Both the position numbers and the translations under genes were made by a program. The notes beneath the pieces are model-generated. The model saw only the letters and a program-made list of their open reading frames with translations. It did not search any database and was not told the DNA's origin. Positions 7,034 through 35,065 of a DNA stretch of 36,253 nt are shown one piece after another. This stretch comes from Deltaproteobacteria bacterium (lineage in GTDB: Bacteria; Myxococcota; Myxococcia; Myxococcales; UBA5297), in NCBI GenBank assembly GCA_016218885.1, contig JACRCT010000657.1, positions 1 to 36,253 of the forward strand. Reading direction: 5' to 3'. Every line of letters starts with the position of its first letter. Within the stretch, counting starts at the first letter, position 1.

Positions 7034-7336
7034 CTAGTGCATGGGTCCCTCAGGCAGCTTGGCGAGATCGATGACCCCGAAGCTCGCCTCATACCGCTTG
7101 AGGTTGTCCTGTAGGGCCAGCAACAGGCGCTTCATGTGCTGGGGGCTGGTGATGATGCGTGAGCGGACCTTGGCCTTGGGCTGCTGCGGCTGCACGTAGA
7201 TGAAGTCCAGGGTGAACTCGGTGGGCGTGTGGTTCACCATCGCCAGGTTGCAGTACGCGCCCTGCGCGGTCTGCTCGTCGAGATCGATCTGCAGTTGGAC
7301 ATCCTTGGGGGCGGGCGCTTCGGGCTTGTCGGCCAT
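7034..7336 (-). CDS. DUF3467 family protein
   Basis: A 100-aa soluble protein. The strong Shine-Dalgarno GAAGGAG, 6 nt before ATG 7336, fixes the start although the frame is open for 157 codons upstream. Residues ~10-85 (DVQLQIDLDEQTAQGAYCNLAMVNHT, then EFTLDFIYVQP, then KVRSRIITSPQHMKRLLLALQDNLKRYE) match the small DUF3467 family. This family is common in myxobacteria and other deltaproteobacteria and its function is unknown. It is divergent from the esterase gene at 7487; a leftward hairpin plus U-tract (7439-7460) lies in its upstream region. Confidence 0.85.
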   Translation of the reverse strand: MADKPEAPAPKDVQLQIDLDEQTAQGAYCNLAMVNHTPTEFTLDFIYVQPQQPKAKVRSRIITSPQHMKRLLLALQDNLKRYEASFGVIDLAKLPEGPMH

Positions 7337-7438
7337 GGCGGGGCTCCTTCTGACGAGTATGGGTGCGAATCCTACCGCCGCAGCGTTCTGGCTGCTCTCG
7401 CGAACTCTCGAAAGGCGGGCATCGCCTGCTCCTCTGTG

Positions 7439-7460
7439 AAAAAGGGGGCTGCCAGCCCCT
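7439..7460 (-). terminator. Leftward intrinsic terminator-like hairpin
   Basis: On the minus strand the sequence reads GGGGCT-GGC-AGCCCC followed by CTTTTT, a 6-bp GC stem with a 3-nt loop and a five-T run, i.e. a textbook rho-independent shape. No leftward gene ends just upstream of it. It could stop antisense transcripts entering from the esterase/glpK side, or act as an attenuator in a long DUF3467 leader (starting 103 nt downstream). Confidence 0.45.
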
Positions 7461-7486
7461 GCGCGGCATGCTATCGGGGAAGGGTG

Positions 7487-8254
7487 GTGCGCCACCCGAC
7501 CGAAGACTCGAGGCTTGTTCCGTTCGACCTGGGCAGAGGTCCTCCGGTCCTGCTGGTCCACGGCTTCACTGGCACTCCCTTCGAGATGCGCTTCCTGGGC
7601 ACGCACCTCGCGCGCCACGGCTTCCGCGCCGTCGGCATGCGGCTGCCCGGCCATGGAGTCGACCCCTTTGCCCTGGAGCAAGCCACCGCCACGCAGTGGG
7701 TCAATGAGGCGCGCGCGGAGCTCCTGCGCATCGGTGAGGGCGGGCGCGCGCACGTGGTGGGACTGTCGATGGGGGCGCTCATCGCCGCCATCCTCGCCGC
7801 TGACCATCCTGACCGCGTGAGCGGCCTGGCGCTGTGCGCCCCGGCGCTACGGCTGAACAAGGTTCGTACCCTGATGATCGGCCTGTCCGCACTGCGCTTC
7901 TTCACGCCTAGGCTGCGCTTCGTCTCCAAGGGGCCCAGCGACCTGCAAGATCCCCTGATGCGAAGGCGGTTGCCGAGCATCGGACGCATCCCTGCCGCGG
8001 CGGTCGAGCAGTTCTCCCGTGTGCGCACCTGGGCCCGCCTGGCCTTGCCCAAAGTGCAGGCTCCGACGGTGGTGGTCTACTCCGAGAACGATCGCACCGT
8101 TCCCTCTGCCGCCGCCTTTGAATGCGCTCGCCTCGTAGGCTCGCGCCCGGTTCGCATGGTACGGCTGGAGCGGTCCAGCCACGTGCTCACGCTCGATGTG
8201 GAGCGCACCCGCGTCGCCGAAGAGATCGAACGCTTCATCCGCGCGCTGGCCTAG
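7487..8254 (+). CDS. Alpha/beta-hydrolase, Est30-like carboxylesterase / monoacylglycerol lipase type
   Basis: A 255-aa cytoplasmic hydrolase. It shows the oxyanion motif VLLVHGFTGTPFEM (~24-37), nucleophile S94 in GLSMGA, acid D202 in YSENDRTVP and H232 in RSSHVLTLD. The spacing is very like Geobacillus Est30-type carboxylesterases (S94/D193/H223), which act on medium-chain esters. No signal peptide is present. The start is probably GTG 7487 (GTG 7484 is three bases earlier), with GGGGAAGG just upstream; the frame is open much further back, but through the divergent DUF3467 gene. Glycerol kinase starts 33 bp downstream on the same strand, so ester or acylglycerol cleavage could feed glycerol to it; that link is inference from position. 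Confidence 0.85.
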   Translation: MRHPTEDSRLVPFDLGRGPPVLLVHGFTGTPFEMRFLGTHLARHGFRAVGMRLPGHGVDPFALEQATATQWVNEARAELLRIGEGGRAHVVGLSMGALIAAILAADHPDRVSGLALCAPALRLNKVRTLMIGLSALRFFTPRLRFVSKGPSDLQDPLMRRRLPSIGRIPAAAVEQFSRVRTWARLALPKVQAPTVVVYSENDRTVPSAAAFECARLVGSRPVRMVRLERSSHVLTLDVERTRVAEEIERFIRALA

Positions 8255-8287
8255 AGAGAGGTCCGCGCCTCGTCGAGGAGCCGCCAG

Positions 8288-9766
8288 ATGGCCCAGTACG
8301 TCCTGTCGATCGATCAGGGGACCACCGGAACCACGATCCTGGTTCTGGACAAGCACCTCGCGGTCAAGGCCAAGGTCAACCAGGAATTCCGGCAGATCTT
8401 CCCCAAGCCGGGTTGGGTCGAGCACAACCTCGAAGACATCTGGGCGACCGTCGAGAGCGGCATCCCCAAGGCGCTGCGCCAGGCAGGGGTCAAGCCGCAC
8501 GAGCTCGTCGCCATTGGCATCACCAATCAACGCGAGACCACCGGCCTGTGGGACCGGCGTAGTGGCAAGCCCGTCCATCACGCCATCGTGTGGCAGTGCC
8601 GGCGCACGGCCGATGCCTGCCAGGAGCTGCGCGCCGCCGGCCACGAGGAGTTCGTGCGCGAGCACGCGGGTCTGGTGCTCGACCCGTATTTCTCGGCCAC
8701 CAAGATCTCCTGGCTGCTCGACAACGTGAAAGGCGCCCGTGCTCGCGCCGAGAAGGGCGAGCTGGCCTTCGGCAACATCGACGCCTTCCTCGTCTGGCGT
8801 TTCACCGGTGGCGCGGTGCACGTCACCGACGCCACCAACGCCTCGCGCACCTCGCTCTTCAATCTCAGGTCCCTGACGTGGGATCCGGAGCTGCTCTCGC
8901 TCTTCCGGGTCCCCAAGGAGGTCCTGCCTCAGGTCAAGGGTTCGAGCGAGGTGTATGGGACGACCAGGGGCGTCAAGTGCCTGCCCGACGGGATCCCGGT
9001 GGCGGGCATCGCCGGGGACCAGCAGGCTGCGCTCTTCGGCCAGGCCTGCTTCGAGCCCGGTGAGGCCAAGTGCACCTATGGCACCGGGGCGTTTCTCTTG
9101 ATGAACGTCGGGCCGCAACCGGTCTTCTCGAAGAAGGGGCTGCTGAGCACCGTGGCCTGGAAGGTGGGCGGGGAGGTCAACTACGCGCTCGAGGGCAGCG
9201 CGTTTATTGCTGGCGCGGCCGTGCAGTGGCTGCGCGATGGGCTCAAGCTCATCAAGAAGGCCTCGGAGATCGAGGCCCTAGCCAAGACGGTCAAGGATTC
9301 GGGTGAGGTGGTCTTCGTCCCTGCGCTCTCCGGGCTAGGCGCGCCGCACTGGCGCCCCGAGGCCCGCGGGCTGCTCGCCGGCCTCTCGCGCGACACCCAT
9401 GCCGGGCACCTCGCGCGCGCGGTCCTGGAGGGAATCGCCTTCGAGGTCTTCGACCTCGCCGAGGCCATGGCCGCCGACGCAGGCAAGACCATTCCGGCCT
9501 TCAAGGTGGACGGCGGGGCGTCGGCCAACGACCTCTTGATGCAGTTCCAGGCCGACCTGTTGGGCGTGCCGGTGGTTCGCCCGCGGATGATCGAGACCAC
9601 CGCCTTCGGCGCCGCCTTCCTGGCAGGCCTGGCGGTCGGCTTCTGGCCAAACAAGGATGAGATTCGCCGCACCTGGAAGGCGGACAAGAGGTTCGTCGCC
9701 AAGATGAAGGATGACGAGCGGGCGCGGCACCTCGCCAAGTGGCGGCGTGCAGTGCAGGGCGCTTGA
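8288..9766 (+). CDS. glpK: Glycerol kinase
   Basis: A 492-aa FGGY-family kinase, the usual length for GlpK, which phosphorylates glycerol to glycerol-3-phosphate with ATP. It begins MAQYVLSIDQGTTGTT, the phosphate-binding loop of glycerol kinases, and continues with GWVEHNLEDIW, the signature GITNQRETT with the active-site Arg-Glu, AIVWQCRRT, and GIAGDQQAALFGQ containing the catalytic Asp. TYGTGAFLLMN and the FGGY C-terminal VDGGASANDLLMQFQADLLG are also intact. The neighbouring genes do not include glpF, glpD or a glp regulator. The upstream esterase may be co-transcribed. Nothing appears degraded. Confidence 0.96.
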   Translation: MAQYVLSIDQGTTGTTILVLDKHLAVKAKVNQEFRQIFPKPGWVEHNLEDIWATVESGIPKALRQAGVKPHELVAIGITNQRETTGLWDRRSGKPVHHAIVWQCRRTADACQELRAAGHEEFVREHAGLVLDPYFSATKISWLLDNVKGARARAEKGELAFGNIDAFLVWRFTGGAVHVTDATNASRTSLFNLRSLTWDPELLSLFRVPKEVLPQVKGSSEVYGTTRGVKCLPDGIPVAGIAGDQQAALFGQACFEPGEAKCTYGTGAFLLMNVGPQPVFSKKGLLSTVAWKVGGEVNYALEGSAFIAGAAVQWLRDGLKLIKKASEIEALAKTVKDSGEVVFVPALSGLGAPHWRPEARGLLAGLSRDTHAGHLARAVLEGIAFEVFDLAEAMAADAGKTIPAFKVDGGASANDLLMQFQADLLGVPVVRPRMIETTAFGAAFLAGLAVGFWPNKDEIRRTWKADKRFVAKMKDDERARHLAKWRRAVQGA

Positions 9767-10078
9767 GCAGGGGCTGGGCCTTTCCGAGCATTCGGCTCCT
9801 TGCCTTGGTTGCCGCACCGCTCTGAGCCAATAGGGTGGGAAGACCTTCGGGAGATCCGGTCTCGTGACCGGACCCGCGCCGAACGCAGGGATCGGGCGCA
9901 CCCGCCATCTCCCCAAGCTCGGCGAGCTTCAGGTCGCCTGCCTCTTCGCCTGCGCGCCGCGCGCTCACGGAGGGGACGGAGGGGGCAGTCTTCGTGTCGC
10001 AAGGGCGGCAGTCAGTAGCAGCGACGCTCTTCGGGGCCCAGGGGAGGTAGAGGGGTCCTCGAGCACCATTCTTCGAAA

Positions 10079-10093
10079 GTACAAGGTTTGTAC
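10079..10093. promoter_or_regulatory. Dyad GTACAA-N3-TTGTAC
   Basis: Perfect 6-bp inverted arms GTACAA and TTGTAC separated by GGT, in the AT-richer part of the 746-bp leader of the kinase-PilZ-Hsp70 gene. It has the size of a dimeric repressor/activator half-site pair. No T-tract follows, so a terminator is unlikely. Confidence 0.4.
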
Positions 10094-10243
10094 CAAGGGG
10101 TATTGCCCGTCCTGCCGATGCCAATGGAACGCGCTATTCGCTCTGCTGGGAGCTTCGGCCTCGGCTTTTGACTGCAAACCTCTTCGCTCAGCGCGCTTCC
10201 GGTTGCCCCTCCTGGAAGCTTTGGCGAGGTGCCGAATCGCAGA

Positions 10244-10262
10244 TGGTAAAGACCTTTTACCA
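10244..10262. promoter_or_regulatory. Dyad TGGTAAA-N5-TTTACCA
   Basis: Perfect 7-bp inverted arms with a 5-bp spacer (GACCT), 250 bp upstream of the 10513 start. The geometry fits an operator for a homodimeric regulator. The arms differ from those of the dyad at 10079, so two different regulators would be implied. Confidence 0.45.
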
Positions 10263-10512
10263 GACCAGCCGGGGGACCTATCCTCCTCTGAGGCCTTCGG
10301 CTGCCCTTTCGCGAACCCCCCCCCGCCTTCCCGGCTTCTCGCCCTGAGCCACGGTTGCGGCTTGCGAAGGATGGGGCAGGGAAGGAGAGCGGTTCCTGGC
10401 TCCTCGATAGCTACGGCACAGGAGAAGACCAGGCTGCGCCCGGAGTGTCGAATTCGAGACGGCGCCGCGATCCCGTCGTATCGTCTCGCGAGAGGCTCGC
10501 GCGCAGGCACCC

Positions 10513-13032
10513 ATGGCTGCAGACAACAACAGGCACTTCGAGGCTGGTCACATCGTCGATGGCAGGTACGAGCTCCAACGGCTGCTGGGCGAGGGCGCGA
10601 TGGGCGCCGTCTACGAAGCCCGCAACGTCTGGACGCAGCGACGCGTGGCCGTGAAGGTGCTCCTGCCGGAGCTGGCCCGCATCGACGGCTTCGCCCAGCG
10701 CTTCATCCTCGAGGGCCGCAGCGCCACCATGGTGTCCCATCCCAGTGTCGTGGAGGTGCTCGACATGGGGCGCGACCCGGCCGACGGGTCGCTGTACCTG
10801 GTGCAGGAATTCCTCGTCGGCACCGGGCTCGACGTGGTTCTCGCCAAGAGGGGGCGGCTGCCGGTCCGCGATGCCCTGGACATCGCCGTGCCGGTCATGG
10901 CCGCGCTGGCGGCGGCCCACCGGCGCGGAATCGTGCACCGCGATGTCAAGCCGGCAAACATCCTCCTGGCCCAGACCGCCTCGGGGATCATCACCCCCAA
11001 GCTGATCGACTTCGGCGTCGCCAAGCTGCTCTCCGGCGACCGACCCACCCAGACCCAACCCGGGGTCCTGGTGGGCACGCCCTGCTACATGTCTCCGGAG
11101 CAGCTCCTCGCCGAGGACCAGATCGATCAGCGTGCCGACGTCTGGGCCATGGGGGTCGTCCTCTACGAGATGCTCGCCGGCCGGCGCCCGTTCGATGGCG
11201 CGCTGGTGCAGGAGGTGTGCGTCGCCATCGCCCGCGGCCAGTTCGCGGCGCTCGGCAGCCTGGCCAAGGAGGCCCCGGACGGGCTGGTGCGGGCGATCTA
11301 CCAGGCCCTGGCACGCCGCAAGGACGAGCGTCACGAGTCGATGGAGGCCTTCCTCGATGCGCTGCTGAGCGCGCCGGGGCTCGAGGAGACCTGCGGCTGG
11401 CTGGTCGAGCGCCATGGCGAGAAGCTGCCCTACCGTCGCCATCATCCGCGCTACGCCGTCCACTGGAGCTGTGACGTGAGCTGTGCGAGTTGGGGCAAGG
11501 TGCTCGAGCTCGTCTCCGCCAACGTCAGCCGCGGCGGGGTGTTCCTGCTCTCCGGCAACCCGCCCCAGCCAGGGGCGAAGGTCGAGGTGGGTCTGGTCCT
11601 GCCCGACGGCGCTCGCATGAGGCTGCGGGGAGCAGTGGTACGAGTGATAGGGCCCGAAGCAGCTTCCTCGGGCGCGAGCGCCGGGTTCGCGGTCCACTTC
11701 GACCAGGAGCATGCGACGGAGCTCTCGGTGCTCGAGCAGGTCGCCGCGGCGCACCAATCGCCGGGGTACGAGGCCTTGCCCGAGGCCGTGCTGGCTCCAC
11801 GCTCTCCAGCGGCCCCGGAGCCCAAGCCAGCGCCGCAATCCCCCCGAGCCCTGCGCGAGCAGCTGGCCGACGCCGTGGGCATCGACTTCGGCACCACCTA
11901 CAGCAGCGTGTCGATCGCCTTCAAGGACCGCGTCTATCCCATCTGCGACGCGCGGCAGCGTTCGCTGCACCCGTCCATCGTGAGCTTTCCCAGGCATGGC
12001 GGCCCCGTGGTGGGTTGGGACGCAAGGCAGAGGCACCTGAGCGAGCCGGAGCGGACGGTGAGGTCGATCAAGCGCCTCCTGGGACGCTCGATCGACGAGC
12101 CCACCCTGCAGGGCTACCTCGGCTCGTTGCCCTATCCCACGGTGCGCGGACCCGGCAACGCCGTGGTGCTGCAGATCGACGACACGCCGCTGGCGCCAGT
12201 ACAGGTGGCCGCGGAGATCATCGGCCTGTTGCGCAAGACCGCTGAGTCGCGCACCGGGAAGGAGATCCTGCGCGCGGTGCTCTCCGTGCCGCTCGACTTC
12301 ACCGAGGCGCAGCGCCAGGCGGTGCAGCGCGCCGCCTCGATGGCCGGGCTCGAGGTGCTCGAGCTGATTGGCGAGCCTATCGCCGCGCTGCTCGCCTACG
12401 GCCTGGGGCAGAACAAGCGCGAGGTCGTCGCGGTCTACGACTTCGGGGGCGGTACCTTCGATTTCTCGGTGGTCGACATGCAGGGCGACCACCACCGCGT
12501 GCTGGCCAACGGCGGGGACGCCTGGCTGGGGGGCGACGACTTCGACCTGGCCATCGCCACCGCAGCCGCCGACCGCTTCTGGCGCGAGACGCGCGTCGAT
12601 CTGCGCCAGCGGGCCGTGGAGTGGCAGCGGCTCCTGTACGCGAGCGAGCACGCCAAGCGGATGCTCACCGCCCAGGAGCAGACAGAGCTGGTGGTGGAGA
12701 AGGCTTTGGAGCATCCCGCTCCCCGCGACCTGCGTTGGAGCCTGAGCCGCGCCGACCTCGAAGCTCTGTGCAAGAGCGCCATCGAGGCTTCGATCGAGGT
12801 GTGTCGGGACGCATTGGCTGGCGCCGGGGTCGCCCTGCAGCGCGTCGATCGCGTGGTCATCACCGGGGGTACCTCGCGGGTTCCCGTCCTGCAGCGCGAG
12901 TTGGCCCGCTTCTTCGGCAAGCCGGTGACCTCGCTCGTCGATCCCGAGATGTCGGTTTGCATCGGTGCCGGGCTGCGTGCGGCCATGCTGACCAAGCATC
13001 AGGTCCGCCAGGCCGCCCACCGCGCGCCCTGA
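10513..13032 (+). CDS. Ser/Thr protein kinase - PilZ - Hsp70-type ATPase fusion
   Basis: An 839-aa soluble three-part protein. Residues ~18-280 form a Hanks-type kinase: Gly loop LLGEGAMGAVYEA, K48 in VAVKVLL, catalytic HRDVKPAN with D144 and K146, metal-binding D166 in DFGVAK, VGTPCYMSPEQ activation/P+1 segment. Residues ~307-400 form a PilZ domain with both c-di-GMP contact motifs: RxxxR (R309, R313) and NxSxxG (N337, S339, G342). A Pro/Ala-rich linker leads to residues ~455-830, an Hsp70 nucleotide-binding domain: phosphate-1 IDFGTTYSS (457-465), phosphate-2 VYDFGGGTFDFS (641-652), adenosine motif VVITGGTSRVP (781-791). The Hsp70 peptide-binding beta-domain and lid are absent; the protein ends just after the ATPase fold. 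No membrane segment is seen. The start ATG has a poor ribosome-binding site. The CZB gene 172 bp downstream has the same direction. Inference: c-di-GMP binding could couple or gate the two nucleotide-using modules. Confidence 0.93.
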   Translation: MAADNNRHFEAGHIVDGRYELQRLLGEGAMGAVYEARNVWTQRRVAVKVLLPELARIDGFAQRFILEGRSATMVSHPSVVEVLDMGRDPADGSLYLVQEFLVGTGLDVVLAKRGRLPVRDALDIAVPVMAALAAAHRRGIVHRDVKPANILLAQTASGIITPKLIDFGVAKLLSGDRPTQTQPGVLVGTPCYMSPEQLLAEDQIDQRADVWAMGVVLYEMLAGRRPFDGALVQEVCVAIARGQFAALGSLAKEAPDGLVRAIYQALARRKDERHESMEAFLDALLSAPGLEETCGWLVERHGEKLPYRRHHPRYAVHWSCDVSCASWGKVLELVSANVSRGGVFLLSGNPPQPGAKVEVGLVLPDGARMRLRGAVVRVIGPEAASSGASAGFAVHFDQEHATELSVLEQVAAAHQSPGYEALPEAVLAPRSPAAPEPKPAPQSPRALREQLADAVGIDFGTTYSSVSIAFKDRVYPICDARQRSLHPSIVSFPRHGGPVVGWDARQRHLSEPERTVRSIKRLLGRSIDEPTLQGYLGSLPYPTVRGPGNAVVLQIDDTPLAPVQVAAEIIGLLRKTAESRTGKEILRAVLSVPLDFTEAQRQAVQRAASMAGLEVLELIGEPIAALLAYGLGQNKREVVAVYDFGGGTFDFSVVDMQGDHHRVLANGGDAWLGGDDFDLAIATAAADRFWRETRVDLRQRAVEWQRLLYASEHAKRMLTAQEQTELVVEKALEHPAPRDLRWSLSRADLEALCKSAIEASIEVCRDALAGAGVALQRVDRVVITGGTSRVPVLQRELARFFGKPVTSLVDPEMSVCIGAGLRAAMLTKHQVRQAAHRAP

Positions 13033-13204
13033 GGCTCGTGGCGGGGCAGAGGAGGGCCTGCCTGACCTTGGGAGAGAGCCTCTGGGCCGGCCGGAAAGCG
13101 CCCTCGGTTCGCGACTCTGGAGCTAATCGCCTGCGGTGAAGGTGCCGATGTCTCCGACTGAGCGCGTTCCGGGCTGGGATCCCGGCAGTGCCCAAGGAGC
13201 ATCC

Positions 13205-13567
13205 ATGGACGCCAAACAAGAGATCGATGCGGCGATCGATGCGCACGCCAAGTGGTTCGTCCGGCTGCGAGTGGCCATCGAGAAGAAGAGCAGCGAGTTC
13301 GCTCCCGGCAAGGTGTCGCTGGACAACGCCTGCGACTTCGGGAAGTGGCTCTATGGGAGCTTTCCGCCGCACCTGAAGGCCAGCCCGGCCTACCTGGAGA
13401 TTCGCAGCCTCCATGCGAGCTTCCACGTCGCCGCCGCGAAGGTCCTGGAGCTGGCGCTGGCGGGCAAGGCTCAAGAGGCGCTGAAGGCCCTCGAACCGGG
13501 AGGGCACCTCAAGCAGGTCTCCATCCAGCTGGTCTCGAAGCTCACCGCCTTGAAGGCCCAGGTCTGA
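13205..13567 (+). CDS. Stand-alone CZB (chemoreceptor zinc-binding) domain protein
   Basis: A 120-aa all-helical protein consisting of little but a CZB domain. The expected zinc ligands are visible: H14 in DAHAKWFVRL, C43 in DNACDFGKWLY, and H70/H74 in LHASFHVAA. CZB domains bind zinc and, in chemoreceptors and diguanylate cyclases, sense zinc or oxidants such as hypochlorite through the cysteine. Here no chemoreceptor or cyclase module is attached. Start ATG 13205 has AAGGAG 6 nt upstream. It follows the kinase-PilZ-Hsp70 gene with a 172-bp gap; co-transcription is possible but not shown. It converges on the gene ending at 13672, with a strong hairpin between them. Confidence 0.88.
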   Translation: MDAKQEIDAAIDAHAKWFVRLRVAIEKKSSEFAPGKVSLDNACDFGKWLYGSFPPHLKASPAYLEIRSLHASFHVAAAKVLELALAGKAQEALKALEPGGHLKQVSIQLVSKLTALKAQV

Positions 13568-13606
13568 GTGCGGCCGTCTCGATGAGATCCCGAAGGTAGG
13601 CAGGCG

Positions 13607-13638
13607 ACAGCCGCCGCCAGCTCCCTGGCAGCGGCTGT
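13607..13638. terminator. Strong hairpin between convergent genes
   Basis: Arms ACAGCCGC-GCCAG and CTGGC-GCGGCTGT pair over 13 of 14 positions (one C/A mismatch) around the 4-nt loop CTCC. It lies between the ends of the CZB gene (13567) and the leftward gene (13672), so it can serve both. There is no clear T-tract on either side. Confidence 0.6.
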
Positions 13639-13671
13639 GTCCTGTCGAAGCTCGTTGGGTACCGCCGCGAT

Positions 13672-15867
13672 CTACCGAGGGTCGGCGAGGATGCGGTCGA
13701 TCTCCGCCTGCGGGTCCTGGATCACGCCCTCGTGCACCAAGGTGAGGTCGCGATTGGACTTGGTGTCGTGCAGCGAGACGTTGTTCACCAGCACCTGGTC
13801 AGCGCCGGCGAGGCTGGCGAGGGTGGCGAGCTCGAGCTGGAGGTCGAGGCTCGCATTGGCCTTGGCGAACACGTGGGCGCGTGCCGCTGGCGTGGCTGCC
13901 TGCTGCAGTCGGGACACGAGTGAGCTGAGCTCCTCGCTGTCGCGCCATGCGGCCCGGTCTTGGGTCAGATTGCGGCCCGTGAGGAAGCGATAGCGGCCCT
14001 CGAGGTCCTGCGCCCGGAAGGAGATGCTGTCGCTCCGGAGCATCTTCATGATGTCGCCGTGGCGCGGGTGGTCGGTGGCCAGCCAGGGCGTATTCCTCCA
14101 CGCGCGCTGGTTGTCGCCGATGAGGTAGTGCATGTCCCAGGGGCGATCGAGCTTCTCGTAGGCGGCCCCGAAGGCCTTCTGCACCTGCTCCGGGCTTACC
14201 TGGCCGAGCGCCTGAAGCCCCTCGTCGGTGATGAAGAAGTCCACCGTGCGATCGGTCTTGCCGAAGCTGTCCAGGAACGTCCCGTTGTCGGCGAGGCCCT
14301 GCAGCGAGTCGCTCTCTGCGCCCAGGAAGCTGCTCAGCTCGATGAACTTGCGCACGTCGTTGCGGGAAGTGACCTTGTCGCCCCGCACGGTCTGGGTCAG
14401 GTGCAGGAAGCTCTCGACCGGCTCTCCCGGCTGCCGGGTCTGGATGAGCTCGGCGGACGTCGCGCGCTTGCCGGCCCAGATGTTGGAGAGGATGCCGGAG
14501 TAGTTCTCGTCGAGCCGGGCCCGGTCGAAGGTGAGCTCGCCCTGCGCCGAGCGGAGCGTGCCGTGAGCCTCGGAGTGGCTGGAAGCAGCTTGCAGCAGAG
14601 CAAGCTTGCCCAGCTTGAGGTTCGCCGAGGTGGAGGAGGTGCGCCCCACTTGGTCGAGGCGCGCGAAGGAGACGCCGCTGCTCGCGCCCTGCGCCCCCAG
14701 GGTGTCGGCCGTCCTCGTGTCCAAGCGCAACAGATCGGAGTAGGCCTTGGCGCCCTCCGCCTGGGACAGATCGATCGTGTAGCTCTGCACCACCTTCTCG
14801 CTCTTGGCGCGTGAGTGCGCCACCGAGAGATCGGCGCTCGTCCACTTGGAGATCTGCTTCTCGATTTTCTTGGCGACGGACTCTCCGCCCTGCTCGAAGA
14901 GGTCTCCGCCGAGCTCCGGCAGGTTGTCCCTAAGAGAGGCGGTGACTCCGACCCGGGCGCCCACCGAGCCGCTGCCCGTGGTGGACTCGAGCGTGGAGAG
15001 GGAGACGAAGACCTTGTCGCCCTCCAGCCGCTTCACCGTGAGCGATACGCTGCCCTCTCTGGACACGCCGACGTTCACGCCCGCCGAGGCCCCCACGCTG
15101 ATGAAGTTGCCGAGGTCGGCCAGCTGCGCGCCCACCCCCACGCCGGCGTTGGCCGCCACCGTCCCTCGCCCGACCAGCCGCACCTCGGTCCCCTCGGCCA
15201 GCGCCTTGGCGTTCTCGGGGTTGAAGGGCAGATCCACCGAGAGGTTCTTGGCGAGCTGGCCCGCTGCAGAGGTCTCGAGCGGATAGGGAGCCAGTACCGA
15301 GTATCCCAAGCTGGCCTTGGAGTTGAAGCCGGCGCTCACGCGGGCGGCGCCCGCCGGCAGCGAGAAGGTGAATCCGGCGCGGGGGTAGATGCCACCACCC
15401 ACCGTGGCCCAGGTCACCTTCTGCCACGCGGCCTCCATGCGCTGGGTCGTCGCCGCGCGATGCGGATCGTCAACGACAAGCGGGTCGTCGGGCCGCAGCG
15501 GTTTGACCTGCGTGCGCACGCAGATGCCGGCGTGGTCGCCCAGCTTGAAGTCGGCGATGGAGAGGTCGCGCGAGCGATAGATCTGGTCCTTGGCGAGGTC
15601 GACGAGCTTGTCCTTGACCTTGTCCAACAGCCCGTCGCTCTCATTGCTGCGCAGGGTGTCGGGCGCCATGCGGAAGAGGGCCAGGGCCTGGTTGCGCTCC
15701 GCGTCGCTGGCGAAGTACTCGCTCTTGAGCTCGTCGCGCAGGACCTGCTGCTGCTCGGCGGTCAGCGGCCCCTCGGCGATGAGCTGCTGCGCCTCGGCGG
15801 CAGTGAGCTTGTGGTCCTTCACCGAGGAAGCGACGCGGTGGCGGAAGGCTTCGAGCGAGACAGGCAT
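13672..15867 (-). CDS. 731-aa protein of unknown function
   Basis: I do not recognise the family. Start ATG 15867 has GAAGAGG 5-6 nt upstream. There is no signal peptide or membrane helix. Residues 1-80 are helical and charged (KDHKLTAAEAQQLIAEGPLTAEQQQVL). Residues ~130-330 are rich in Gly/Ala/Val/Ser beta strands (WATVGGGIYPRAGFTFSLPAG, GVGVGAQLADLGNFISVGASAGVNVG) that look like a beta-barrel or pore-forming-type core. Residues ~340-731 are mainly helical and polar. The alternating pattern with no secretion signal could suit a protein exported by a dedicated system or a phage-like particle component, but this is only an impression. The leader carries a run of eight G (15893-15900), 26 nt before the start. 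It converges on the CZB gene. Confidence 0.75.
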   Translation of the reverse strand: MPVSLEAFRHRVASSVKDHKLTAAEAQQLIAEGPLTAEQQQVLRDELKSEYFASDAERNQALALFRMAPDTLRSNESDGLLDKVKDKLVDLAKDQIYRSRDLSIADFKLGDHAGICVRTQVKPLRPDDPLVVDDPHRAATTQRMEAAWQKVTWATVGGGIYPRAGFTFSLPAGAARVSAGFNSKASLGYSVLAPYPLETSAAGQLAKNLSVDLPFNPENAKALAEGTEVRLVGRGTVAANAGVGVGAQLADLGNFISVGASAGVNVGVSREGSVSLTVKRLEGDKVFVSLSTLESTTGSGSVGARVGVTASLRDNLPELGGDLFEQGGESVAKKIEKQISKWTSADLSVAHSRAKSEKVVQSYTIDLSQAEGAKAYSDLLRLDTRTADTLGAQGASSGVSFARLDQVGRTSSTSANLKLGKLALLQAASSHSEAHGTLRSAQGELTFDRARLDENYSGILSNIWAGKRATSAELIQTRQPGEPVESFLHLTQTVRGDKVTSRNDVRKFIELSSFLGAESDSLQGLADNGTFLDSFGKTDRTVDFFITDEGLQALGQVSPEQVQKAFGAAYEKLDRPWDMHYLIGDNQRAWRNTPWLATDHPRHGDIMKMLRSDSISFRAQDLEGRYRFLTGRNLTQDRAAWRDSEELSSLVSRLQQAATPAARAHVFAKANASLDLQLELATLASLAGADQVLVNNVSLHDTKSNRDLTLVHEGVIQDPQAEIDRILADPR

Positions 15868-16021
15868 GGGACCTCTTCGAGGAGCGGCTTTCGGGGGGGG
15901 AGGCCGGTCAATGACGACGCAGCATTATGCCTGGAGAGCAGACGGACGATCCACTCCTCGGCTTCCTGCTTCGAGAGGTGGGAGCCAGGCAACGTTGGAG
16001 CAAGGGGCCTGGGCGATCCCT

Positions 16022-16501
16022 CTAGCGAAGGGCGGCCTCGACCATCGCCAGGTCCTCGTTGCTGCGCACCTCGAGGCAGTCGGCGGCGGAGTCGCACTGC
16101 GGGCAGCGCCCCACGCTTTCGGTGCGTGCCCAGACGCGGCGGCAGCGCAGGCACACGTAGAACGGCCGCAGGGTGGCGCGGGCGAGCGCGAGCAGCTCGT
16201 GGACGGGCAGAGGGGGCTGCTCGGCGCCCCGCGGCGGGCGGGGCTTCACCAGCTGGCGCACTCCGCCCGCGAAGAAGGCTGTGGCGATCAGGAGCAGCAG
16301 GAGCGCGAACGCCCGCAGCTCGCCTATCTGGTGAAGGTGCTGGCGGGCCACCCGCTCGGCAGCGACCGACCAGACGAGCGCGCCACCCCCCGCGAAGGCC
16401 GCAGCGGTCCCCAGCAGCAGGCCGCCCCCAGCGCGTCCGAGGCGGCGCACCGCATCACGCGCGTCCAGGAAGAGCGCGGCGAGGGAGTCGATCGACTTCA
16501 T
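16022..16501 (-). CDS. Two-TM membrane protein with C-terminal zinc ribbon
   Basis: A 159-aa protein of unknown function. Two hydrophobic helices at ~24-47 (GGGLLLGTAAAFAGGGALVW) and ~63-81 (RAFALLLLLIATAFFAGG) are followed by a Pro-rich linker and a zinc ribbon with C117/C120 and C133/C136 (CLRC...CPQC), presumably cytoplasmic. A further Cys at 142 is probably not a ligand. The assigned start ATG 16501 lies 13 bp after the PilZ gene stop; an alternative ATG at 16537 would overlap that gene by 23 bp, and neither has a good ribosome-binding site. Position suggests an operon with the PilZ protein and lnt upstream on the same strand. Confidence 0.7.
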   Translation of the reverse strand: MKSIDSLAALFLDARDAVRRLGRAGGGLLLGTAAAFAGGGALVWSVAAERVARQHLHQIGELRAFALLLLLIATAFFAGGVRQLVKPRPPRGAEQPPLPVHELLALARATLRPFYVCLRCRRVWARTESVGRCPQCDSAADCLEVRSNEDLAMVEAALR

Positions 16502-16514
16502 CGGGAAGGGATGC

Positions 16515-16919
16515 TCAGCCTGCCCGGTGCTGGGCAAGCCGGCGAGCGACGATCTCCTCGATCAGCGCCATGGAGTCGGCGTCGAAGTTGACGAACTCGA
16601 CCCCCATCCCGGCGACGACCGCGGGATCGCCCGGGAGGTTGACGCGCACGACCCGCCCCAGGCCCTCGATGAGCCGCGACCCGTCCTTGAGGGCGAACTG
16701 CAGATAGACGAACGCGCCCTCCTCTCGAGGCTCGTTGGTCTTGATGAACATTCCGCCCACCGAGAGGTCGGTGGAGTACTCGGCGAGGAACTCCTCGAAG
16801 GTGTCGAAGCGGTACTGGATGAGCAGCTGCAGCGGAGCGCGGGGATGGCGTCGGCGCTCATCGCCGGAATCAGCAGCCTCCGCGTCGGACATCGGGGCTT
16901 CTTCGTCGGAGGGGCACAT
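16515..16919 (-). CDS. PilZ-domain protein (single domain)
   Basis: A ~134-aa protein almost entirely made of a PilZ domain of the type common in Myxococcus. The c-di-GMP contact residues are intact: RxxxR (R23...R27 in ERRRHPRAPL) and DxSxxG (D51, S53, G56 in DLSVGGMFI). After binding, such proteins usually act on a partner through protein contact; no other domain is present. Starts at 16919 (used here) and 16892 (MSDAEA, preceded by the purine stretch GACGAAGAAG) are both possible, the second perhaps better. It lies 44 bp downstream of lnt and 13 bp upstream of the zinc-ribbon gene, all leftward. Confidence 0.9.
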   Translation of the reverse strand: MCPSDEEAPMSDAEAADSGDERRRHPRAPLQLLIQYRFDTFEEFLAEYSTDLSVGGMFIKTNEPREEGAFVYLQFALKDGSRLIEGLGRVVRVNLPGDPAVVAGMGVEFVNFDADSMALIEEIVARRLAQHRAG

Positions 16920-16963
16920 GGGGCTGCCATTCTAGACCAAGTCCGAATCGGCGCCAGTTGGGG

Positions 16964-18589
16964 TCAGGCGGCGGCAGCGGCCTTGCGTCGACCCGCCTCT
17001 CGGGAGCGGCCCGCCTGGGTGTTCTCCGGACGCAGCCGGCGCTGCAGGACCCCGAGGGTCGCGGCCGCCAGGGCCAGCCATCCGAGCATGTCGCCGAGGA
17101 GCCCGTAGACCGTGGCGCCGCCGGTGATCATCGGCACGTCCCGCACCAGGGTCTCTTCGGTCTCGAAGCCGCTGCGCTGCACCAGCCTGCCGCTCGAGTC
17201 GATGAAGGCGCTGATGCCCGTGGCGGTAGAGCGCACCAGCCAGCGGTGGTGCTCCACGGCGCGGAAGACCGAGAGCGCGAGGTGGATGGGCGGCTCGGCG
17301 GGCCCATACCAGGAATCGTTGGTCCCGTTGAACATCGCGTGCGGGCGCGTCCCGGCCTCGTCGAGGGGGCCCATCAGGTCGCGGATGTGGCGCGGCAGGA
17401 TGTCCTCGTAGCAGACGTCGGCGGAGAGCCTCCAGGGGCCCACGGGCAGCGGCGCGAACGAGGTGCCGCGCTCGTACACCGAGAGGTAAGGCAGGATCTT
17501 CATCTTCAGCAGCCAACGGAAGAAGCCGGGGAAGGTCTCGTAGCCGGGCAGGTACTCGCCGAAGACGAGCAGCTGCACCTTGTCATAGGCGGCGACCGTC
17601 TCCCCGCCCGGCGCAATGGCCAGGATGCTGTTCCAGACCCGGGCCCTCCCGCCCTCGGGGTTGGGCTCGCCGCGCAGGGCCCCCACCAGCATGGGGACCT
17701 TCACCTCGGTGGCGACCTTGCCGGTGAGGTTGGCTTTGCCCATCACCAGCCGGTTGAGGCCGCTCTCGGGCCAGACCGCCAGCCCCAGCCCGGGGATGCG
17801 CATCGCCTCGTCGGTCATGTCCCGATAGCGGCGGATGCCGGCCTCGGCCATCTCGTGCTTCGCGCCCGCCCCCACGTTCGCCTGGATGATCGCCGTCTTG
17901 AGGGTCGGCGCGGCCCGCTCGGCGGCGTCGTTCTGACCCATTCGCACCCAACCGTAGACGAGCGTGAAGGCCAAGGCCCCGGCCGCGGCGAGGGGCAGGG
18001 CGCGCGGGAGGGGACGGCGGTGGAGGCGGGCGAGGATGACCTCGGCCACCGCGCCGCTCACCAGCGCGATGAACCCCGACAAGAGCAGCACGCCGCCGAG
18101 GTCCACGACCTGGATGAGCAGCGGAACCCAGGCCTGCGAGTTGGCGGTGTAGCTGGGAAAAAGCAGGGGGAAGGCGAACTCGGTGGCCACCAGCGCCACC
18201 GGCGCGGTCCAACCGATGGCGATGCCGGTGCGCCGGTTCAGCTTCCAGGCCAGCCAGCCAAAGACGGCCAGCAGCGCACCCTGCCCCAGGCACAGCAGCA
18301 GGTAGCCGAGCACCGAGAGCGGCAACGGGAGGAACGCGAAGGTCTGCAGCAGGTGGACGACCCAGTAGTACCCGCCCAGGTGCGTGACGAAGCCCATCCA
18401 CCACGAGAGCAGGAAGGCGCGCCGGCCGGTCTGGATGCCGTCCAGGGCGACGAGCAGCGGCACGAAGGCGACCCATTCCAGGTACCACTGGTCGAAGCCG
18501 ATGAAGCCCACGAAGTAGAGCACGCCGGAGAGCGCGGCGAGGCCGATGGGAAGGAGCTTGCGCACGGATGGCACGATAGGGGGGCTCAC
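16964..18589 (-). CDS. lnt: Apolipoprotein N-acyltransferase
   Basis: A 541-aa inner-membrane enzyme that transfers an acyl chain from phospholipid to the N-terminal cysteine of apolipoproteins. About seven hydrophobic segments fill the first ~215 residues, followed by the periplasmic nitrilase-like domain and a final membrane helix near 505-525. The catalytic triad is in place: E275 in VWPESG, K337 in YDKVQLLVFGEYLPG and C393 in DVCYEDILP, with spacing close to E. coli Lnt (E267, K335, C387). GTG 18589 is used as the start; GTG 18574 is equally possible and neither has a clear ribosome-binding site. It is the first gene of a leftward group with a PilZ protein and a zinc-ribbon protein and is divergent from the kinase gene at 18732. 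Confidence 0.95.
   Translation of the reverse strand: MSPPIVPSVRKLLPIGLAALSGVLYFVGFIGFDQWYLEWVAFVPLLVALDGIQTGRRAFLLSWWMGFVTHLGGYYWVVHLLQTFAFLPLPLSVLGYLLLCLGQGALLAVFGWLAWKLNRRTGIAIGWTAPVALVATEFAFPLLFPSYTANSQAWVPLLIQVVDLGGVLLLSGFIALVSGAVAEVILARLHRRPLPRALPLAAAGALAFTLVYGWVRMGQNDAAERAAPTLKTAIIQANVGAGAKHEMAEAGIRRYRDMTDEAMRIPGLGLAVWPESGLNRLVMGKANLTGKVATEVKVPMLVGALRGEPNPEGGRARVWNSILAIAPGGETVAAYDKVQLLVFGEYLPGYETFPGFFRWLLKMKILPYLSVYERGTSFAPLPVGPWRLSADVCYEDILPRHIRDLMGPLDEAGTRPHAMFNGTNDSWYGPAEPPIHLALSVFRAVEHHRWLVRSTATGISAFIDSSGRLVQRSGFETEETLVRDVPMITGGATVYGLLGDMLGWLALAAATLGVLQRRLRPENTQAGRSREAGRRKAAAAA

Positions 18590-31189: not shown

Positions 31190-35065
<3,876 letters not shown>

What the first reader, a model, noticed from the sequence alone, without database searches (positions are those of the whole stretch)
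10513..13032. Ser/Thr kinase, PilZ and Hsp70-type ATPase in one polypeptide
Seen directly: complete kinase motifs (K48, D144, D166), a PilZ domain with both c-di-GMP contact motifs (R309/R313; N337/S339/G342), and an Hsp70 nucleotide-binding domain with all three nucleotide motifs but no substrate-binding domain. Each family is well known on its own. A single soluble protein linking second-messenger binding, protein phosphorylation and an actin/Hsp70-type ATPase is not an architecture I can name. Inference: c-di-GMP may gate the kinase or ATPase, with the kinase perhaps phosphorylating the ATPase domain in cis. The 746-bp leader with two dyads suggests separate control.
Basis: partly seen in the sequence, partly recalled or inferred. 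Interest (0 to 1): 0.85.

Follow-up and report, generated by a model that had tools for sequence, protein, structure and literature searches.

The report
Kinase, c-di-GMP sensor and chaperone ATPase fused
A myxobacterial gene really does join a protein kinase, a c-di-GMP-sensing (PilZ) domain and the engine half of an Hsp70 chaperone in one protein; the two pairwise fusions are already known from Myxococcus, but the three-way fusion was found only in this genome, and its chaperone half lacks both the client-binding part and the usual co-chaperone docking residues, so it probably works as a signalling switch rather than a folding machine.

Summary
Window 10513-13032 (+) is one 839-aa ORF with intact Pkinase (aa 19-242), PilZ (308-408) and an Hsp70 nucleotide-binding domain (454-830; profile positions 1-380 of 599) with no substrate-binding domain. 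It is not a frame error. The triple fusion was found once in 195 genomes of the phylum. Its PilZ-NBD half belongs to a small SBD-less clade (100/100 support) with two kinase-free Archangiaceae proteins. All ATPase residues are kept, but the DnaJ-docking triad R167/N170/T173 is E/G/I here and D/A/V in the other two, so it is unlikely to be a J-protein-driven chaperone. The gene lies in a 6.8-kb segment absent from the matching site of a same-family genome; the segment also holds a CZB zinc-sensor gene and an orphan gene. Best reading: an accessory c-di-GMP-responsive kinase with an Hsp70-type ATPase switch module. Ligand binding and activity are untested. Unrelated kinase-Hsp70 fusions in Sumerlaeota, Actinobacteria and another myxobacterium suggest this coupling arose repeatedly.

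The parts
10513..13032 (+). kinase-PilZ-Hsp70(NBD) fusion gene, 839 aa
   Evidence: single open frame; Pfam; AF2 model
10561..11364 (+). Ser/Thr kinase domain (aa 17-284), PknA/PknB-like, RD type, complete catalytic motifs
   Evidence: Pkinase 6.6e-46; PknA chains 7e-46 in PDB; motif positions
11434..11736 (+). PilZ domain (aa 308-408) with RxxxR (R309/R313) and NxSxxG (N337/S339/G342)
   Evidence: PilZ 6e-9; TIGR02266 4.9e-11, below its cut-off; motifs
11767..11859 (+). Pro/Ala-rich flexible linker between PilZ and NBD (aa 419-449)
   Evidence: pLDDT below 50 at 419-439; matching Pro/Ala-rich linker in the Archangiaceae relatives
11872..13002 (+). Hsp70-type nucleotide-binding domain (aa 454-830), ATPase residues kept, no inter-domain linker or SBD
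   Evidence: HSP70 profile 1-380/599; residue table; Foldseek
12361..12381 (+). site equivalent to the DnaK J-domain-docking residues R167/N170/T173, here E617/G620/I623 (charge reversed at 167)
   Evidence: role of these DnaK residues from PMC4022485
13205..13567 (+). stand-alone CZB zinc-binding domain protein directly downstream (ATG at 13205 behind AAGGAG), possible co-transcribed partner
   Evidence: CZB PF13682 1.8e-10; best NCBIfam hit is the CZB part of diguanylate cyclase PRK09894, 3.3e-9
13672..15867 (-). orphan 731-aa protein in the same extra segment, no Pfam match
   Evidence: no homologue in 12 relatives
16022..16537 (-). 171-aa protein with apparent membrane helices and a CxxC...CxxC zinc-ribbon-like motif, at the edge of the segment
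   Evidence: translation; no significant Pfam match
9762..16536 (.). segment absent from the matching site of same-family genome G002 (about 254 bp there between the FGGY and PilZ genes)
   Evidence: blastn collinearity 7036-9761 and 16537-18559; tblastn order DUF3467-FGGY-PilZ-LNT
9767..10512 (+). 746-bp upstream intergenic stretch with dyads at 10079-10093 and 10244-10262; no demonstrated regulatory signal

Best explanation
The gene encodes an accessory, soluble, c-di-GMP-responsive Ser/Thr kinase whose output or location is set by an Hsp70-type ATPase module that is no longer a chaperone. Proposed working: c-di-GMP binds the RxxxR/NxSxxG pocket of the PilZ domain, which sits between kinase and ATPase, and changes how the two pack. 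The NBD binds and slowly hydrolyses ATP as a conformational switch or timer, without J-protein stimulation and without a client, because it lacks linker, SBD and the J-docking triad. The kinase phosphorylates itself (activation-loop Thr residues) and a target, which may include the NBD in cis or a partner held by the NBD. It arose by adding a PknA/B-type kinase in front of a pre-existing SBD-less PilZ-NBD protein. Shown here: domain content, intact catalytic and ligand motifs, loss of SBD and J-site, shared ancestry of the PilZ-NBD half with two Archangiaceae proteins, absence from the matching site of a relative. Inferred: c-di-GMP binding, ATPase activity, kinase activity and their coupling.
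For: Complete kinase, PilZ and NBD motifs. NBD residues equivalent to DnaK D8, K70, E171, D194, T199 and D201 all kept, while R167/N170/T173 are E/G/I here and D/A/V in both relatives, against R167 in 87 of 94 Hsp70s compared. NBD clade with the two SBD-less PilZ-NBD proteins at 100/100. PilZ and NBD match those proteins as one unit (34% and 48%) while the kinase has no counterpart there. The genome has 20 GGDEF matches, so c-di-GMP is very probably made. A CZB protein resembling the sensor part of a diguanylate cyclase lies directly downstream. Precedents: PilZ-DnaK CsdK1/2 and kinase-PilZ Pkn1 (PMC10313047, PMC8316039).
Against: No binding, ATPase or kinase data. In the precedents, Pkn1's PilZ is predicted not to bind c-di-GMP and CsdK1 lacks half of the motif; the CsdK2-CdbS interaction did not depend on the PilZ arginine (PMC8316039, PMC10313047). 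One Archangiaceae relative has G in place of the motif serine (NAGRGG). The PilZ sequence finds no convincing solved PilZ structure by sequence alone. A single occurrence gives no conservation test of the three-way join.
Confidence: 0.4

Rival explanations
1. It is a chaperone-type protein of the CsdK kind: the NBD acts in trans with other Hsp70 or J-protein machinery to stabilise PilZ-containing clients (such as the stand-alone PilZ protein at 16515-16919), with the kinase as an added regulator.
For: Same domain pair as CsdK1/CsdK2, which stabilise the stand-alone PilZ protein CdbS (PMC10313047); the CsdK2 DnaK part, not its PilZ, binds CdbS; a stand-alone PilZ gene lies 3.5 kb away.
Against: No linker or SBD and the J-docking triad is lost or charge-reversed. 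NBDs of CsdK-like proteins form a different, well-supported clade (100/99), although one common clade is not rejected (p-AU 0.095). The nearby PilZ gene belongs to the conserved flank, present without the fusion in G002.
Confidence: 0.15
2. The NBD serves mainly as an ATP-dependent dimerisation, scaffold or filament module (actin-like) that brings kinases together for trans-autophosphorylation; c-di-GMP controls assembly.
For: NBD fold is complete and weakly similar to MreB profiles; kinases of this kind can activate by dimerisation (general knowledge); other STK-Hsp70 fusions exist.
Against: Similarity is far closer to DnaK than to any filament-forming actin homologue; no polymerisation evidence.
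Confidence: 0.25
3. A recent chance fusion without coupled function: the kinase works alone and PilZ-NBD is a passenger or is decaying.
For: Only one genome has it; it sits in a segment missing from a relative; long branch in the NBD tree (1.03).
Against: Catalytic and ligand residues in all three domains are intact despite about 50% divergence from the nearest relatives; uniform GC3.
Confidence: 0.15
4. Assembly or frame artefact that joins separate genes.
For: The source is a fragmented genome: 1290 contigs, 87% complete, 5.9% contamination.
Against: Single frame over 2.5 kb with no stop, uniform codon bias, short join without N; PilZ-NBD is one unit in relatives; the contig is native to its lineage (LNT gene 69% identical and collinear in a same-family genome).
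Confidence: 0.03

Closest known systems
CsdK1 / CsdK2 (MXAN_3778 / MXAN_6605), PilZ-DnaK chaperones of Myxococcus xanthus (PMC10313047)
   Same: PilZ N-terminal to an Hsp70 NBD in one protein, in the same phylum; full c-di-GMP motif present (as in CsdK2).
   Different: CsdK proteins have no kinase and keep linker and SBD; CsdK-like proteins read here (L005, L012, L013) keep the J-docking residues R167/N170/T173 and form another NBD clade.
Pkn1 (MXAN_1467), Ser/Thr kinase with PilZ domain, important for sporulation in M. xanthus (PMC8316039)
   Same: Ser/Thr kinase and PilZ in one protein; the window's own genome has such a protein too (L025).
   Different: No Hsp70 domain; Pkn1's PilZ is predicted not to bind c-di-GMP; the window kinase does not group with the own kinase-PilZ L025. 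Pkn1 itself was not fetched.
SBD-less PilZ-NBD proteins of Archangiaceae bacterium nzgw249 (L035/L011 and L036/L023)
   Same: PilZ + linker + NBD ending at the same point; 42-46% identical over the shared part; same loss of J-site; same short C-terminal tail.
   Different: No kinase; 574 aa.
Kinase-Hsp70 fusions elsewhere: Sumerlaeota (L043, L046, L049, L052, L053), Myxococcales CSMAG_262 (L075), Microtetraspora and Streptomyces (L082, L102, L114)
   Same: Ser/Thr kinase and Hsp70 in one polypeptide.
   Different: No PilZ found; Hsp70 part runs into the SBD in those scanned; kinase at the C-terminus in Sumerlaeota and L075. A common NBD clade of the window and the Sumerlaeota fusions is rejected (p-AU 7e-5).
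SBD-less Hsp70 of eukaryotes, STCH/Hspa13 (PMC9691929)
   Same: Hsp70 NBD without a substrate-binding domain.
   Different: ER protein, no fused kinase or PilZ; not compared by sequence here.

Membership tests
CsdK-type PilZ-DnaK chaperone | PilZ domain N-terminal to Hsp70 NBD | tested here: met
   Pfam
CsdK-type PilZ-DnaK chaperone | Hydrophobic linker and substrate-binding domain | tested here: not met
   profile 1-380/599 and about 9 residues after it; L005 and L012 reach profile 531 and 497
CsdK-type PilZ-DnaK chaperone | NBD in the same clade as CsdK-like proteins | tested here: inconclusive
   separate clades 100/100 and 100/99; joint clade not rejected, p-AU 0.095
Hsp70 chaperone with J-protein cycle | ATPase residues (DnaK D8, K70, E171, D194, T199) | tested here: met
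Hsp70 chaperone with J-protein cycle | J-domain docking residues R167, N170, T173 | tested here: not met
   E617, G620, I623
Hanks-type Ser/Thr kinase (PknB-like) | Gly loop, K48, E67, HRD D144, DFG D166, activation loop | tested here: met
Hanks-type Ser/Thr kinase (PknB-like) | Phosphotransfer activity | not testable with these tools
   needs in-vitro assay
c-di-GMP-binding PilZ | RxxxR and (D/N)xSxxG motifs | tested here: met
   R309/R313 and N337/S339/G342
c-di-GMP-binding PilZ | Measured c-di-GMP binding | not testable with these tools
   needs ITC, BLI or DRaCALA
Pkn1-type kinase-PilZ | Kinase and PilZ in one polypeptide | tested here: met
Pkn1-type kinase-PilZ | Kinase domain closest to other kinase-PilZ proteins | tested here: inconclusive
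   not with own kinase-PilZ L025 in the tree, which is poorly resolved; Pkn1 itself was not fetched

The most novel reading that the evidence does not exclude
A c-di-GMP-gated protein kinase that uses a J-protein-independent, SBD-less Hsp70 ATPase domain as an intramolecular switch: a new use of the Hsp70 fold in bacterial signalling, and one instance of a wider, repeatedly evolved coupling between Ser/Thr kinases and Hsp70 domains.
Probability: 0.3. Interest if true: 0.75.

Novelty: new variant of a known kind. Interest (0 to 1): 0.5.

Why it matters
If the coupling is real, one purified protein would report how a second messenger, protein phosphorylation and an Hsp70-type ATPase talk to each other. 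The SBD-less, J-site-lacking PilZ-NBD clade suggests that Hsp70 nucleotide-binding domains can be recruited as signalling switches without chaperone function. The recurrence of kinase-Hsp70 fusions in at least three phyla makes that idea testable in tractable hosts such as Streptomyces. Against this, the triple fusion is known from one draft genome.

Tried and rejected
Frame error or chimeric contig: rejected on the continuous frame, uniform GC3 and a collinear same-family flank. Regulatory leader: dyads, RNA fold, sigma-70 and Rfam scans gave nothing clearly beyond chance. Plasmid-borne relatives: none covers 80% of the protein. L057 looked like a kinase-Hsp70 neighbour but is two genes on opposite strands. 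E217 as a J-site marker: variable in Hsp70s generally (R in 13 of 94), so only R167/N170/T173 are relied on, R167 most. Several whole-genome searches with P0004 and the L075 protein failed on the server, so the counts of SBD-less PilZ-NBD and Hsp70-kinase proteins in the phylum are lower bounds.

Full report
What is there. Window 10513-13032 on the + strand is one open frame of 839 codons. Pfam finds Pkinase at aa 19-242 (6.6e-46), PilZ at 308-408 (6e-9) and HSP70 at 454-830 (2.4e-93), the last only over profile positions 1-380 of 599. Third-position GC is high and even along the whole frame. The AlphaFold2 model shows three folded units joined by low-confidence linkers at 300-317 and 419-439, and the NBD superposes on DnaK, mortalin and Hsc70 NBDs over its whole length.

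Where it comes from. The window is a contig of an 8.7-Mb draft genome (87% complete, 5.9% contamination). A genome of the same order (G102) has the same contigs, by length and match, as 'Archangiaceae bacterium nzgw249' (20875 and 20405 bases), so this is a myxobacterium. The contig is native: the apolipoprotein N-acyltransferase at 16964-18589 is 69% identical in a same-family genome.

Relatives of the protein. Searching 195 genomes of the phylum gave no second kinase-PilZ-Hsp70 protein. The nearest are two paralogues in the Archangiaceae genome: PilZ, a Pro/Ala-rich linker and an NBD that ends at the same point as the window's, with no kinase and no SBD. The second of these is split by an assembly gap. 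The PilZ (34%) and NBD (48%) match these proteins as a unit, while the kinase has no counterpart. In an NBD tree the three form a clade with 100/100 support, on long branches. CsdK-like PilZ-Hsp70 proteins with SBD (L005 of the own genome, L012, L013) form a separate clade (100/99); a single origin of all PilZ-Hsp70 proteins is not rejected (p-AU 0.095). The kinase domain is of the PknA/PknB type and does not group with the own genome's kinase-PilZ protein L025, in a poorly resolved tree. The simplest history is that a kinase was placed in front of an existing SBD-less PilZ-NBD protein.

The NBD is an ATPase that seems to have left the chaperone cycle. Aligned to E. coli DnaK, the window keeps the equivalents of D8, T11, K70, P143, R151, E171, D194, T199 and D201. 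R167, N170 and T173, which are implicated in DnaJ binding or its stimulation of ATP hydrolysis (PMC4022485), are E617, G620 and I623 here and D, A, V in both Archangiaceae proteins. Among 94 Hsp70-type sequences R167 is arginine in 87; the exceptions are the three SBD-less PilZ proteins and four others. Together with the missing linker and SBD this argues that the clade does not run a J-protein/client cycle. That is an inference from sequence; no ATPase was measured.

Genomic setting. In the same-family genome G002 the order DUF3467 - FGGY kinase - PilZ - LNT is collinear with the window, but only about 254 bp separate FGGY from PilZ, where the window has 6.8 kb (9762-16536). The extra segment holds the fusion gene, a stand-alone CZB zinc-binding domain gene (ATG 13205 behind AAGGAG) and two genes on the other strand: a 731-aa orphan with no Pfam match and no homologue in 12 relatives, and a 171-aa protein with apparent membrane helices. 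One comparison genome with both flanks cannot say whether the window gained or G002 lost the segment, but absence of the fusion from the other same-family genomes favours gain. No tRNA lies in the window and no integrase was seen among the annotated neighbours, so the route is unknown. The CZB protein resembles the sensor part of the diguanylate cyclase family PRK09894, a possible but unproven link to c-di-GMP. The genome has 20 GGDEF matches.

The leader.

What is known. In M. xanthus, Pkn1 is a kinase-PilZ protein needed for full sporulation, with a PilZ predicted not to bind c-di-GMP (PMC8316039). CsdK1 and CsdK2 are PilZ-DnaK chaperones that enable accumulation of the PilZ protein CdbS during heat stress (PMC10313047). 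The same group's survey says four M. xanthus PilZ proteins carry DnaK or DnaJ domains. Thus both halves of the window protein are known architectures and the own genome holds one of each (L025, L005). The triple combination, the lack of an SBD and the lost J-site are the new points. No paper held here describes a kinase-PilZ-Hsp70 or bacterial kinase-Hsp70 fusion.

Wider pattern. The genome scan turned up kinase-Hsp70 fusions without PilZ: Hsp70 first, kinase last in five Sumerlaeota/BRC1 genomes; the same order in a Myxococcales draft (L075, whose NBD has lost K70, E171 and T199); kinase first in Microtetraspora and two Streptomyces. Grouping the window with the Sumerlaeota fusions is rejected (p-AU 7e-5). 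Fusion of Ser/Thr kinases with Hsp70 has therefore happened more than once, which supports a functional link between the two activities without showing what it is.

Most likely mechanism. An accessory c-di-GMP-responsive soluble kinase in which an Hsp70-type ATPase domain acts as a nucleotide-driven switch or scaffold. Steps shown: architecture, intact motifs, loss of chaperone parts, ancestry, absence from a relative's matching site. Steps inferred: ligand binding, activities, coupling, targets. Confidence in the architecture is above 0.95; in this mechanism about 0.4.

Noticed in passing
L043 4953-8681, L046 3089-6373, L049 4959-8762, L052 4977-8546, L053 4971-8681: Sumerlaeota/BRC1 proteins of 1095-1268 aa with an Hsp70 (NBD plus SBD) N-terminal and a Ser/Thr kinase C-terminal, with TPRs between them in the two scanned; found in five genomes.
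   Followed up: partly
L075 4917-7676 (and G198:C30:265-2868): Myxococcales Hsp70-kinase fusion of 920 aa whose Hsp70 part has lost catalytic residues (DnaK K70->Q, E171->A, T199->Y), a possible pseudo-Hsp70; a second 905-aa frame in the same genome may also hold Hsp70 and kinase.
   Followed up: partly
L082 4881-7364, L102 4776-7418, L114 4674-7412: Actinobacterial kinase-Hsp70 fusions (kinase first) in Microtetraspora and Streptomyces; a plasmid copy in S. anulatus is annotated only as Hsp70 family protein.
   Followed up: partly
window 13205-13567: Stand-alone CZB zinc-binding domain protein directly downstream of the fusion gene.
   Followed up: partly
window 13672-15867: 731-aa orphan protein, rich in Gly/Ser/Val stretches, no Pfam match and no homologue in 12 relatives.
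   Followed up: partly
window 31190-35065: CheB-CheR-PAS-histidine kinase fusion of 1291 aa, a known kind of hybrid sensor.
   Followed up: no
L094, L108: Two planctomycete Hsp70s also have D in place of the J-docking R167; L094 has a long tail after the NBD, L108 is cut by the contig end.
   Followed up: no
G000 (whole genome of the window): The genome holds 139 matches to the kinase, PilZ or Hsp70 parts at E<=1e-3, mostly Ser/Thr kinases.
   Followed up: no
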